Part shown: piece after piece, positions 921 to 3,754 of the stretch | Layout of the letters: each line of letters opens with the position of its first letter | Numbering within the stretch: position 1 is the stretch's first letter | Assembly: GCA_007694915.1 (NCBI GenBank) | Contig: REEV01000118.1 | Location: 1-35,653 of the forward strand | DNA length: 35,653 nucleotides | Reading direction: 5' to 3' | Source: Cyanobium sp. PLM2.Bin73 | GTDB lineage: Bacteria > Cyanobacteriota > Cyanobacteriia > PCC-6307 > Cyanobiaceae | The notes under the pieces: model-generated | Databases searched by the model: none | Told to the model about the DNA's origin: nothing | What the model saw: only the letters and a program-made list of their open reading frames with translations | Position numbers and translations under genes: made by a program

Positions 921-1130
921 GGGACTGCTGCGCACACCGCGCTCTGCTCGCTCCCGACCCTAGGCATCGCTGGCGCCAGCCCCTCGCGCCGGCCCTGGGC
1001 CGCCCCCTACCCTTGGCAGGTTCTGTCAGCAGTGGCGTGGCTGCAGGCCCGAACCCGGTCCTGGATCGGGGTCTGGACTGGCAGCCGAACACGTCGCCGG
1101 CTGGCCCCATCCCCAAAGGAGGAGGTGCCC

Positions 1131-1184
1131 GTGAGTTCCAGTTGTTTCACCAAGGGTCTGCTGATCGCGGAGAACGCCGCCTGA
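1131..1184 (+). CDS. Candidate 17-residue leader peptide or small protein
   Basis: A GTG-initiated reading frame encodes MSSSCFTKGLLIAENAA and ends in TGA. It is preceded at 1115-1122 by AAAGGAGG, a full match to the 16S rRNA anti-Shine-Dalgarno sequence, 8 bases before the GTG, and by further AGG bases. This is one of the best ribosome-binding sites in the window, which argues that the frame is translated despite its size. No family is recognised. It lies 237 bases upstream of the porin and before a strong hairpin (1241-1283), so it may be a regulatory leader peptide, or a small independent protein whose transcript ends at that hairpin. Confidence 0.4.
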   Translation: MSSSCFTKGLLIAENAA

Positions 1185-1240
1185 TTACGGCGCCTCAACC
1201 CTGATCAAACGGTTCCGCGACCGACGCGGACCCGGCGAGA

Positions 1241-1283
1241 GCCCCCGGCGTCCCTGATCCAGGGATTCCGGGGGCATCGTTTT
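1241..1283 (+). terminator. Strong hairpin, terminator or attenuator in the porin leader
   Basis: The outer stem GCCCCCGG (1241-1248) pairs perfectly with CCGGGGGC (1268-1275). The inner stem TCCCTG (1251-1256) pairs with CAGGGA (1260-1265) around a three-base loop. Two unpaired bases on each side separate the stems. The tract ATCGTTTT follows (four T at 1280-1283), shorter than the T-runs at the other terminators here. It could end the micro-ORF transcript or act as an attenuator before the porin. Confidence 0.55.
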
Positions 1284-1320
1284 GGCGGCTCCCCCGCCGG
1301 ATTGGTGGCTCCCCTGCTGG
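1284..1320 (+). repeat. Imperfect 17-bp direct repeat in the porin leader
   Basis: GGCGGCTCCCCCGCCGG (1284-1300) is repeated as GGTGGCTCCCCTGCTGG (1304-1320) after three bases. The copies differ at three positions, all C/T. The second copy together with AGGGGCCA (1321-1328) can also form a small hairpin. The 20-base period is not a multiple of three, so this is not a repeated coding unit. Function unknown. Confidence 0.5.
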
Positions 1321-1387
1321 AGGGGCCATTGCGCGCTCTGGCACAGCCCTTCTGGGGGGACCTGGCCACGGGCGACACACTGTGGTC

Positions 1388-1413
1388 GGCGCATTGCGCC
1401 TCTTGTGTGAGGA
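1388..1413 (+). promoter_or_regulatory. Porin ribosome-binding region with upstream hairpin
   Basis: A 5-bp hairpin GGCGC-ATT-GCGCC (1388-1400) lies just ahead of the single-stranded TGTGTGAGGA (1404-1413), whose AGGA is the Shine-Dalgarno of the porin ATG at 1422. The segment 1404-1413 is perfectly complementary over 10 nt to 2873-2882 in the porin's own 3' UTR. It also matches the complement of the CTCCTCACAC core of Yfr1, a cyanobacterial small RNA known to target porin mRNAs. This is a likely site of translational control, by inference. Confidence 0.5.
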
Positions 1414-1421
1414 ACATCCCC

Positions 1422-2849
1422 ATGAAACTTTTCCAGCAACTGCTGGTTGCTCCTGCGGCCCTTGGTCTGCTGGCCCCCATGGCCGCGACCGCTGCAGAGA
1501 TCAACCTCGATGGCGTCAACCAGTACGCCAGTGACGAGCAGGTCACCAGCATCTCCCAGTTCCCCGACGTCCGTCCCACGGACTGGGCCTACCAGGCGCT
1601 CTCCAACCTGATCGAGCGCTACGGCTGCGTGGCCGGCTATCCCGACGGCACCTTCAAGGGCCAGCGGGCCATGACCCGCTTCGAGGCTGCCGCCCTCCTC
1701 AATGCCTGCCTTGATCGCGTCACCGAGGTGACAGATGAGCTCAAGCGCCTGATGACCGAGTTCGAGCGGGAACTCGCCATCCTCAAGGGCCGCGTCGATG
1801 GCCTCGAGGCCAAGGTGGGTGAGCTGGAGGCCAACCAGTTCTCCACCACCACCAAGCTGAACGGCATCGCCACCATGACCCTGGGTGGCGCCAGCAACAC
1901 CGGCCTGGGCGACAAGGTCACCGCCAACTACGACGTTCGCCTGAACTTCGACACCAGCTTCACCGGCAAGGATCTGCTGCGCACCACTCTGCGTGCCGGC
2001 AACTTTGACGACTCGGTGTTCGGCAACGGCAACACCCTGATGGAAGTTGCCTTCGAGGGCGCTTCCGGGCCTGATTCGGTTGAGATCAACCGCCTCTTCT
2101 ACCAGTTCCCCGTTGGCGAGAGCTGGACGGCCACCGCGGGTGCCAAGGTCCGTCAGGACGACATGCTGGCCATGTGGCCCAGCGCCTACCCGGCCGACAC
2201 GATCCTCGACATCTTCACCCTGGCCGGTGCTCCCGCCACCTACAACCTCAGCCTGGGTGCCGGCGTCGGCCTCTGGTACCAGGCCCCCGAGGGTGGCTTC
2301 AACGCCAGTGTCAACTACGTCTCAGCCTCGGATCGGGCTCGTGACTCGTCCCGCGGGGTGGGCAAGGGCGGCACCGTCACCGCTCAGTTGGGCTACGCCG
2401 GCGAGAACTGGGGTGCGGCTTTTGCCTACAGCTACTCCGAGGTCGACTACGTCTTCGACAACAGCTCCAACAACATCGGCCTGAGCGCCTACTGGTCTCC
2501 CGCTGAGACCGGTTGGGTGCCCTCCATCAGTGCCGGCTTTGGCTACACCAGCTTCAACTCCAGCCGTCCTATCGACGATGGTTACAGCTGGATGGTGGGT
2601 CTGCAGTGGGAAGACATGTTCATGCAGGGCAATGCCCTCGGCATGGCCATCGGCAGTGCCGGCCAACGCCGCGGCGAGGATCTGTCTGGCCTCTGGTCCG
2701 ACCCCGGCAACAACACCCTGGCCTACGAGCTCTGGTACAAGTTCCAGGTCACCGACAACATCAGCGTGACCCCCGCCTTCTTCTGGGTGGAGCGCAGCGG
2801 TCGCTCCGACACCTACGGCGGCGTGCTCAAGACCACCTTCACCTTCTGA
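1422..2849 (+). CDS. SLH-domain outer-membrane porin (SomA/OprB type)
   Basis: A 475-residue porin of the cyanobacterial Som/OprB family that forms beta-barrel channels in the outer membrane. The order of parts is a Sec signal peptide (MKLFQQLLVAPAALGLLAP, cleavage near ATAA-EI at about 25), an SLH domain (about 46-95, with FPDVRPTDWAYQALSNLI and GYPDGTFKG) that should hold the barrel to the cell wall, a short coiled coil (about 100-137, rich in Glu, Leu and Lys), and a long barrel domain ending in the terminal Phe typical of outer-membrane barrels. The ATG at 1422 is chosen because the signal peptide starts there and AGGA precedes it; the frame is open further upstream. The gene is unusual for its structured leader and its 3' UTR. 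Confidence 0.93.
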   Translation: MKLFQQLLVAPAALGLLAPMAATAAEINLDGVNQYASDEQVTSISQFPDVRPTDWAYQALSNLIERYGCVAGYPDGTFKGQRAMTRFEAAALLNACLDRVTEVTDELKRLMTEFERELAILKGRVDGLEAKVGELEANQFSTTTKLNGIATMTLGGASNTGLGDKVTANYDVRLNFDTSFTGKDLLRTTLRAGNFDDSVFGNGNTLMEVAFEGASGPDSVEINRLFYQFPVGESWTATAGAKVRQDDMLAMWPSAYPADTILDIFTLAGAPATYNLSLGAGVGLWYQAPEGGFNASVNYVSASDRARDSSRGVGKGGTVTAQLGYAGENWGAAFAYSYSEVDYVFDNSSNNIGLSAYWSPAETGWVPSISAGFGYTSFNSSRPIDDGYSWMVGLQWEDMFMQGNALGMAIGSAGQRRGEDLSGLWSDPGNNTLAYELWYKFQVTDNISVTPAFFWVERSGRSDTYGGVLKTTFTF

Positions 2850-2855
2850 TCGCCT

Positions 2856-2903
2856 GATCCCCAGGGGCCGGCTCCTCACACACCTCCCCTGCCCTTGGGG
2901 ATC
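2856..2903 (+). promoter_or_regulatory. Porin 3' UTR hairpin with Yfr1-like loop
   Basis: GATCCCCAGGGG (2856-2867) pairs with CCCTTGGGGATC (2892-2903) as a 12-bp stem with one G-T wobble. The 24-base loop (2868-2891) is C/U-rich and carries CTCCTCACACACCTCCCC. Within it, CTCCTCACAC matches the core I recall for Yfr1, and TCCTCACACA (2873-2882) is the exact reverse complement of the porin ribosome site at 1404-1413. The stem has no T-run, so it is not a terminator. It may be a cis element or the body of a 3' UTR-derived small RNA. Confidence 0.5.
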
Positions 2904-2933
2904 CTGCAATCCGTCTCTCCTTTCACACACCTC
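2872..2933 (+). repeat. Two copies of a CTCCT-CACACACCTC motif
   Basis: CTCCTCACACACCTC (2872-2886) recurs as CTCCTTTCACACACCTC (2917-2933), with two extra T in the second copy. The first is in a hairpin loop; the second lies in a stretch that appears unpaired. Both contain TCACACA, complementary to TGTGTGA at 1404-1410, and CCTC, which resembles anti-Shine-Dalgarno sequence. Confidence 0.6.
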
Positions 2934-2981
2934 GTCTTCGTTCCCGTCAACGACGTTTCCTCCAACGCCGTTCTCCTCAAA

Positions 2982-3005
2982 CCCCGGCTTCGGCCGGGGT
3001 TTTTT
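2982..3005 (+). terminator. Intrinsic terminator of the porin gene
   Basis: A 7-bp stem CCCCGGC (2982-2988) and GCCGGGG (2993-2999) closes a TTCG tetraloop and is followed by six T (3000-3005). It leaves the porin with a 3' UTR of roughly 155 bases, long for this gene-dense window. Confidence 0.93.
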
Positions 3006-3028
3006 GTTGGCCCTATGGCTTCCCTAGG

Positions 3029-3754
3029 GTGCAGACCTTGCCGCCGCCGCCTTTCCGTTTGAGTTCAGCCCGGTCCACCAGCGCTGCCGCCGCCAGTGAT
3101 CCCTATCGGGTGCTGGGGGTGTCGCCCGAGGCCAGCAGCGCCGAGATCAAGGCCGCCTACCGCAGCCTGGTGAAACAGCACCACCCCGATGCCGGCGGCG
3201 ATGACACCACGATCCTGGCTCTGAATGCGGCCTGGGAAGTCCTCGGCGACCAGGAGCGTCGCCGCAGCTACGACCGCCACCGCGCCGTCAGCCACCCCGG
3301 CCCCACCCCCACCGCCGGCGCTGCCGCCAGGTCGGCCGCCACCCCCACGGCCTCGGAAGACCAGATCCTGGCCTGGCTGCAGCAGGTCTATGCCCCGATC
3401 GACCGGCTGCTCGCCCAGGTGGTGAACCCCTTCCCCGCCCAGCTGCGCGCCCTGGCCGCCGATCCCTACGACGACGGGATCATGGAGGCCTTCTGCACCT
3501 TCCTCGAGCAGAGCCAGGCGCGCATGGCCCGGGTGGAGGGTCTGTACCGCGCCCAGCCCTGTCCCGCGGGCCTGCAGGAGTTCAGCCTCGAGCTCTACCA
3601 CTGCCTGAGCCTGGTGAAGGACGCCCTGCTCGATCTGGAGCGCTACACCATGGGCTATGTGGATTCCTACCTGCGCGACGGCCGCGAACTGCTGCGCAAG
3701 GCCCGCCTGCTGCGCAGGCAGCTGCACGAGAACCGCCGTCAGCTGCAGCGCTGA
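3029..3754 (+). CDS. J-domain (DnaJ-like) protein
   Basis: A 241-residue protein with one J domain at about 23-82, from DPYRVLGVSPEASSAEIKAA through the diagnostic HPD (52-54) to EVLGDQERRRSYD. J domains stimulate the ATPase of Hsp70/DnaK. The Gly/Phe and zinc-finger regions of full DnaJ are missing. The linker (about 83-110) is rich in Pro, Ala and Thr. The C-terminal half is helical with no recognised domain. The GTG start at 3029 is 23 bases beyond the porin terminator and has a weak ribosome site. The client is unknown. It converges on ndhO with a 7-base gap. Confidence 0.85.
   Translation: MQTLPPPPFRLSSARSTSAAAASDPYRVLGVSPEASSAEIKAAYRSLVKQHHPDAGGDDTTILALNAAWEVLGDQERRRSYDRHRAVSHPGPTPTAGAAARSAATPTASEDQILAWLQQVYAPIDRLLAQVVNPFPAQLRALAADPYDDGIMEAFCTFLEQSQARMARVEGLYRAQPCPAGLQEFSLELYHCLSLVKDALLDLERYTMGYVDSYLRDGRELLRKARLLRRQLHENRRQLQR

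What the first reader, a model, noticed from the sequence alone, without database searches (positions are those of the whole stretch)
1404..2903. Porin ribosome site perfectly complementary to a hairpin loop in its own 3' UTR
TGTGTGAGGA at 1404-1413 includes the Shine-Dalgarno of the porin. Its exact reverse complement, TCCTCACACA, lies at 2873-2882 in the 24-base loop of a 12-bp hairpin (2856-2903) in the 3' UTR. The loop also contains CTCCTCACAC, the core I recall for Yfr1, a small RNA known to target porin mRNAs in Prochlorococcus. The porin transcript therefore appears to carry both the target and a mimic of the regulator. It could block its own translation by 5'-3' pairing, or release a 3' UTR small RNA acting on this and sister porin mRNAs. 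I do not know of such an arrangement being described.
Basis: partly seen in the sequence, partly recalled or inferred. Interest (0 to 1): 0.75.

Follow-up and report, generated by a model that had tools for sequence, protein, structure and literature searches.

The report
Porin mRNA tail mimics its repressor
In some freshwater relatives of Cyanobium, the tail of an outer-membrane porin messenger RNA carries a conserved hairpin whose loop copies the active part of a small RNA (Yfr1) known to shut porin genes off, so the porin message may carry its own brake.

Summary
TGTGTGAGGA (1404-1413) overlaps the porin's ribosome site; its exact reverse complement lies in the loop of a 13-bp hairpin that starts 6 nt after the stop codon.

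It is not chance. Among relatives found by porin protein alone, 27 of 67 distinct 3' UTRs have the motif in a hairpin loop, against 0.27 expected from shuffles. In 23 aligned copies 97% of stem cells pair and 7 of 8 pairs show double changes, while the loop core is CCTCACAC in 25 of 28. A scan of 400 family genomes with the hairpin model listed 54 matches; of 36 at 31.4 bits or more I examined 35, and all lie just 3' of a porin, in sense.

In this genome CTCCTCACAC occurs here, in Yfr1, and as its complement in a Yfr2-type RNA. The loop can therefore pair with porin ribosome sites or with Yfr2.

Best reading: a Yfr10-like regulator built into a porin 3' UTR, giving negative feedback on porin synthesis. 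Transcription, release and effect are untested. Precedents are Yfr10, OppZ/CarZ and icaR; I found no description of this combination in the papers searched.

The parts
1404..1413 (+). TGTGTGAGGA, ribosome-site region of the porin, complementary to the 3' UTR loop and to the Yfr1 motif
1422..2849 (+). Porin ORF, 475 aa, SLH plus OprB domains, por_somb family
2856..2868 (+). 5' arm of the 13-bp hairpin stem
2869..2890 (+). 22-nt loop
2872..2882 (+). CTCCTCACACA: 10 bases of the 11-base Yfr1 motif (2872-2881) and the 10-base complement of the ribosome site (2873-2882)
   Evidence: motif from PMC2518516
2891..2903 (+). 3' arm of the hairpin stem
2904..2978 (+). C/U-rich stretch with a weaker second site, TTTCACACAC near 2914
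   Evidence: second motif only weakly enriched in relatives
2979..3002 (+). Intrinsic-terminator-like hairpin, followed by T run

Best explanation
The 3' UTR of this porin mRNA presents a Yfr1/Yfr10-type antisense loop on a stable hairpin, followed by a C/U-rich stretch and a terminator (about 2850-3005). I think this tail works as a small RNA, probably after cleavage from the mRNA: its loop pairs with GUGUGAGGA at the ribosome sites of its own and of sister porin mRNAs and lowers their translation, a negative feedback on porin synthesis wired into the Yfr1/Yfr2 circuit. Shown here by sequence: the hairpin, its conservation and covariation, its near-restriction to porin 3' UTRs, the complementarity, and a Yfr1 and a Yfr2-type gene in the same genome. 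Inferred: that the tail is transcribed and released, that it pairs in the cell, and that the effect is repression (from published Yfr1 work).
For: Motif-in-loop hairpins in 27 of 67 distinct porin 3' UTRs collected by protein search; 60 rounds of shuffles mean 0.27, maximum 1. Covariation on 23 rows: 97.3% of cells paired versus 72.5% in shuffles, 41 double-changed cells versus 11.7, 0 of 500 shuffles reaching either. Model scans without protein information fall on porin tails: 9 of 9 matches (7 of the 9 outside the model's seed), then 40 of 53 examined by tblastn, among them 34 of 35 at 31.4 bits or more, the 35th by its porin-like C-terminus; 17 of the 40 are not in the model's training rows. 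All 24 element-bearing porins whose start is in the locus have GTGTGAGGA there. Loop opening costs 0.01 kcal/mol; loop x own site -17.5 over 10 bp with 5.1 to open the site; loop x C8 sister site -22.1, x C124 sister site -14.7. Published: Yfr1 lowers a PMM1121 porin 5' UTR reporter 4.7-fold in E. coli and Yfr2 undoes it (PMC6778093, passages). ApcZ shows that a cyanobacterium makes a 3'-end-derived small RNA (PMC8136909, passages).
Against: No RNA data. Loop and own site do not covary at the flanking base. The GTGTGAGG site is nearly as common without the element (25 of 29), so Yfr1 alone explains the site. Predicted pairing with the Yfr2-type RNA is stronger than with any porin site tested (-28.7, stem constraint ignored). 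By bulk duplex energy own site x own UTR is only modestly better than shuffled UTRs (median -19.8 versus -15.9; 12% of shuffles reach the median). No sigma-70-like promoter was found in 1200-3100. One genome of the genus, G007, lacks it, and the label needs 14 changes on the porin tree, at least 9 forced. In one search the reversed control pattern is as frequent in the genome (4) as the motif (3).
Confidence: 0.47

Rival explanations
1. Yfr2 sponge. The loop pairs mainly with the Yfr2-type RNA, the antagonist of Yfr1. Abundant porin mRNA would withdraw Yfr2, free Yfr1 and so lower porin translation indirectly; or Yfr2 binding would change the stability of the porin mRNA.
For: Predicted loop x Yfr2-type RNA -28.7 kcal/mol versus -17.5 for the own site, stem constraint ignored. 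Yfr2 binds Yfr1 and Yfr10 by this motif and outcompetes the mRNA ppa (PMC6778093, passages). The loop does not follow the own ribosome site.
Against: No RNA data. The hairpin is porin-restricted among strong matches, which a general sponge would not need. Pairing with a constrained loop was not modelled.
Confidence: 0.28
2. Cis 5'-3' pairing. The uncut mRNA folds back, the loop covers its own ribosome site and blocks initiation or exposes a double strand to RNase III, as for icaR.
For: Perfect 10-bp complementarity in one mRNA; precedent icaR (PMC3868564, abstract).
Against: No covariation of loop and own site beyond an invariant core. Sister porins share the site, so trans action is equally possible.
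Confidence: 0.12
3. The hairpin matters for mRNA 3' end stability or binds a protein, and the likeness to Yfr1 reflects binding by a shared protein and not base pairing.
For: Stable, covarying stem just after the stop codon; no direct evidence for pairing in the cell.
Against: A plain stability stem needs no constant loop, yet the core is CCTCACAC in 25 of 28, and the three deviants keep pairing with GUGUGAGG through G-U (weak, since most transitions would). 6 of 55 porin tails without a hairpin still carry CCTCACAC, 0.26 expected.
Confidence: 0.1
4. Chance match.
For: C/U-rich tails make such motifs likelier; the 10-mer is not over-represented in the genome as a whole.
Against: Shuffles, covariation and model scans.
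Confidence: 0.01

Closest known systems
Yfr10 small RNAs (Prochlorococcus, Synechococcus WH8102)
   Different: In MED4 a 78-nt RNA next to Yfr2 (PMC2518516); here in a porin 3' UTR, with the Yfr2-type RNA on another contig. Where Yfr10 lies in WH8102 was not seen
Yfr1 (Rfam RF01116)
   Same: 10 of 11 motif bases; porin mRNAs are known Yfr1 targets
   Different: Yfr1 is a separate gene of this genome; its motif lies between two stem-loops; no RF01116 match at the porin tail
OppZ and CarZ, autoregulatory 3' UTR small RNAs (Vibrio cholerae)
   Same: 3' UTR sequence complementary to the initiation region of its own mRNA
   Different: Release and effect are untested here; the seed here is shared with an old global small RNA
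icaR 3'-5' UTR pairing (Staphylococcus aureus)
   Same: 3' UTR motif complementary to the own Shine-Dalgarno site
   Different: Here in a covarying hairpin loop, with sister targets and a Yfr2-type partner
ApcZ (Synechocystis)
   Same: 3'-end-derived small RNA in a cyanobacterium
   Different: Regulates another gene (OCP); no sequence relation was tested

Membership tests
Yfr1 (RF01116) | Reaches the Rfam gathering score | tested here: not met
   0 matches in the window; no RF01116 match at E up to 5 in 1000-3300; the genome's Yfr1 is at C131, 61.1 bits
Yfr1 (RF01116) | Motif single-stranded between two stem-loops | tested here: not met
   Motif is in a hairpin loop
Yfr10 | Yfr1 motif in the loop on top of a stem | tested here: met
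   definition from PMC6778093; 10 of the 11 motif bases
Yfr10 | Gene directly next to a Yfr2-family gene, as in MED4 | tested here: not met
   Hairpin on C4, Yfr2-type RNA on C54; in the marine strains position is said to vary
Yfr10 | Detected as a separate small RNA | not testable with these tools
   No RNA data
Autoregulatory 3' UTR small RNA (OppZ/CarZ type) | Lies in the 3' UTR and shares a terminator | tested here: met
   (terminator by consensus only)
Autoregulatory 3' UTR small RNA (OppZ/CarZ type) | Complementary to its own translation initiation region | tested here: met
Autoregulatory 3' UTR small RNA (OppZ/CarZ type) | Released by RNase E and represses its own mRNA | not testable with these tools
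   Needs RNA mapping and reporters
icaR-type 5'-3' UTR pairing | 3' UTR motif complementary to the own Shine-Dalgarno | tested here: met
icaR-type 5'-3' UTR pairing | Acts in cis; partners co-evolve | tested here: inconclusive
   Core nearly invariant, flanking base does not covary; cis action not testable
Yfr2 / Cyano-1 (the C54 RNA) | Rfam gathering score | tested here: met
   RF01701 Cyano-1, 50.9 bits, cut-off 41; that Cyano-1 is Yfr2 is recalled, not from a call

The most novel reading that the evidence does not exclude
A clade of freshwater picocyanobacteria has built a Yfr10-like regulator into the 3' UTR of one porin mRNA. One transcript would be at once a target of Yfr1 (ribosome site), a source of a Yfr1 mimic (tail) and a sponge for Yfr2, closing a feedback loop from porin transcription to the small-RNA circuit that controls outer-membrane permeability.
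Probability: 0.45. Interest if true: 0.75.

Novelty: new variant of a known kind. Interest (0 to 1): 0.62.

Why it matters
Yfr1 and Yfr2 are almost universal in cyanobacteria (PMC6778093, abstract), and how their activity is tied to the state of the outer membrane is, as far as I know, open. A conserved Yfr1-motif loop on porin mRNA tails gives a direct, testable link: porin transcription itself would supply the regulator. It would also be the first case I know of in which a 3' UTR carries the seed of an ancient global small RNA, with covariation evidence across several genera.

Tried and rejected
Chance: rejected by shuffles, covariation and model scans. The 10-mer's genome count alone says nothing: 3 places, 4 for the reversed control. 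Yfr1 itself: no RF01116 match at the tail. A porin-independent home for the same hairpin: strong matches examined all fell on porins; weaker ones include a different hairpin with the motif before a small ORF. A promoter for the tail: no sigma-70-like site in 1200-3100, a weak test. Coevolution of loop and own ribosome site: not found. A second motif in the C/U-rich stretch: weak, 14 of 46 versus 6.4 expected. Ribosome-site counts were set aside because its finder itself demanded G[TA]GAGG; one search replaces them.

Alignments: MAFFT of all hairpins put the stems out of register; I used a gapless 7-row seed and alignments fitted to the model, which lean towards the structure. A5 held one unrelated match (L021 1340-1379 minus); A6 does not. 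R1 at the thresholds used did not report L037, L045, L046, L049 and L057, which the script had found, nor the window itself in the 121-genome scan.

Rows dropped: two hits with short 3' UTRs (L036 and one of L082). L018 was missed by that script (mismatch) and added by eye. 53 of 54 matches were examined; G250:C2 was not fetched. In one search two of 46 positives (L141, L147) are doubtful and were relabelled as lacking it for the tree, which used 94 of 101 rows (short or identical ones left out).

Full report
What is there. The porin ORF runs 1422-2849, with Pfam OprB and SLH and NCBIfam por_somb. TGTGTGAGGA at 1404-1413 overlaps its ribosome site. TCCTCACACA occurs in the window only there, on the minus strand, and at 2873-2882; 0 of 100 shuffles had two matches. 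Six bases after the stop codon begins a 13-bp stem, 2856-2868 with 2891-2903, with the motif in its 22-nt loop. A C/U-rich stretch and a terminator-like hairpin at 2979-3002 follow. The stretch 2850-3010 folds better than all 200 shuffles, z -4.24.

Genome context. CTCCTCACAC has three exact places in the 2.72-Mb genome; the reversed control has four, so the count is not unusual, but the places are telling: this loop; Yfr1 (RF01116, 61.1 bits); and, as the complement, the start of an RNA that matches Rfam Cyano-1 (that this is Yfr2 is recalled). GTGTGAGGA followed by ATG after 2-10 bases occurs three times, control one: this porin, the sister porin on C8, and a place on C122 where I saw no convincing gene. 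A sister on C124 has TTGTGAGGA.

Conservation. Porin relatives were collected by protein sequence only: 49 loci of genome contigs, and matches at E <= 1e-100 in 16 of 40 genomes. Of 67 distinct 3' UTRs with at least 100 bases at hand, 27 have the motif in the loop of a stem of at least 6 bp; 60 rounds of shuffles gave a mean of 0.27 and a maximum of 1. L018, with one mismatch in the stem, makes 28. The stems differ in sequence (for example gggcctgg/ccaggccc, gtccgggct/agcccggac, ctccagcgc/gcgctggag, ggaactggc/gccagttcc). The loop core is CCTCACAC in 25 of 28; the other three (CCTCGCAC, CTTCACAC, TCTCACAC) can still pair with GUGUGAGG through a G-U.

Covariation. On alignment A6, 23 rows fitted to model R1, 97.3% of 183 cells pair (shuffles 72.5%), 7 of 8 pairs have a change on both sides (25 of 500 shuffles reach 7), 41 cells change on both sides (shuffles 11.7, 0 of 500), and sliding by one column drops pairing to 60-66%. 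The alignment leans towards the structure; shuffles and slides are the control.

Scans without protein information. R2, from 23 rows, over 400 family genomes: 46 genomes, 54 places. I examined 53. By tblastn 40 of 53 follow a porin end by 15-60 nt in sense; 17 of these 40 are not training rows, judged by place or contig length (G269, G276, G187, G246, G221, G230, two in G210, G173, G125, G008, G194:C3, G110, G012, G082, G242, G098:1691055). At 31.4 bits or more, 36 places are listed and 35 were examined: 34 porin-linked by tblastn, one (G003:C82:28872) by the porin-like end of the frame before it. Below that, 6 of 18 are porin-linked. In the genus 12 of 13 genomes have a match at E <= 1. G007 has none; one of its porins keeps a stem there with a changed loop, TTCCTCCGAG. 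In a class-wide sample of 194 genomes only G000 and G021 matched at E <= 0.2. Scans of over 40 genomes use strict filters that lose weak matches, so absence elsewhere, marine genera included, is provisional.

Which porins carry it. Among the porin genes examined in G002 (3), G006 (4), G010 (4) and G004 (5), one each carries the hairpin. In a set of 101 distinct porin genes, enriched by element searches, 46 were scored positive, two doubtful. On a tree of 94 the label needs 14 changes, at least 9 forced, against 31 in shuffles; 23 of 31 members of the window porin's clade have it (quick method, long branches flagged). Of 55 without the hairpin, 6 carry CCTCACAC in the first 160 nt, 0.26 expected, none for the reverse complement.

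What it can pair with. Of element-bearing porins (with L018) whose start is in the locus, 24 of 24 have GTGTGAGGA there; without the element 25 of 29 have GTGTGAGG. Loop x own site -17.5 kcal/mol over 10 bp; loop opening 0.01 and site opening 5.1; loop x C8 site -22.1; x C124 site -14.7; loop x Yfr2-type RNA -28.7, ignoring the stem. The base after CACAC is A in 21 of 24, opposite T in 8, G in 7 and C in 6, so the loop does not follow its own site. By bulk duplex energy the own pairs are only modestly better than shuffled UTRs: -19.8 versus -15.9, with 12% of shuffles reaching the median.

Mechanism. Yfr1 represses a reporter of the MED4 porin PMM1121 and Yfr2 relieves this (PMC6778093, passages). 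Yfr1 pairing is by its conserved motif, mostly at translation initiation regions (PMC6974561, passages). The loop shows the same motif, so the tail should either act like Yfr1/Yfr10 on porin messages or withdraw Yfr2 from Yfr1; both give negative feedback. I prefer a released small RNA, because the tail has its own terminator, a free loop and sister targets, and because 3'-end-derived small RNAs exist in cyanobacteria (PMC8136909, passages). Transcription, release and effect were not shown.

Compared with the known. Yfr10 has the same motif-in-loop form but is a separate RNA next to Yfr2 in MED4 (PMC2518516, passages; PMC6778093). OppZ/CarZ (PMC7398697, abstract; PMC9438474, passages) and icaR (PMC3868564, abstract and outline) are the two modes of self-control. 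The searches for Yfr1 with porin (13 listed), Yfr10 (4 listed), two of Yfr1, porin and UTR-derived (25 of 73 listed), Cyanobium with small RNA and porin (1 listed) and three of porin mRNA, UTR-derived, autoregulation and Shine-Dalgarno (8 of 11 listed) showed no title or abstract start that describes this arrangement. Most subscription papers and all supplements were out of reach.

Verdict.

Noticed in passing
L180, L181, L182, L183, L186, L188, L191, L194: A different hairpin with loop motif ACTCCTCACAC in genus g10 genomes, not 3' of porins; in five of the eight loci it lies 20-27 nt before an ATG of a small ORF (66 aa in four, 55 aa in one; MAGFSVFFCDAQRCSIQPVRAMDP...). Two copies each in G098 and G234. 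Possibly a 5' UTR element of the Yfr10 kind.
   Followed up: partly
L189 and L192 (G233, G017): Weak model matches with CCCTCACACA in a longer loop, not near a porin.
   Followed up: no
L055, L040, L150, L132, L184 and others, 3' of the hairpin: Further unpaired copies such as CCTCACAC or TCTCACAC, and a recurrent CCTCCACTTCTCAACACAC stretch, between hairpin and terminator.
   Followed up: partly
L135, L134, L089, L143, L146, L123: Porin 3' UTRs with CCTCACAC but no hairpin found by the script, 6 of 55.
   Followed up: partly
L075 / L140 (G007), 3' of the porin: A 9-bp stem in the same place with a changed loop, TTCCTCCGAG: perhaps a decayed element.
   Followed up: no
L059: A cyanobacterial porin contig in a record titled Bifidobacterium breve MAG, probably mis-binned or mislabelled.
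   Followed up: no
Own genome, contigs C8, C53, C85, C124: Sister porin genes are cut at contig ends, so some of their 3' UTRs or ribosome sites could not be read.
   Followed up: no
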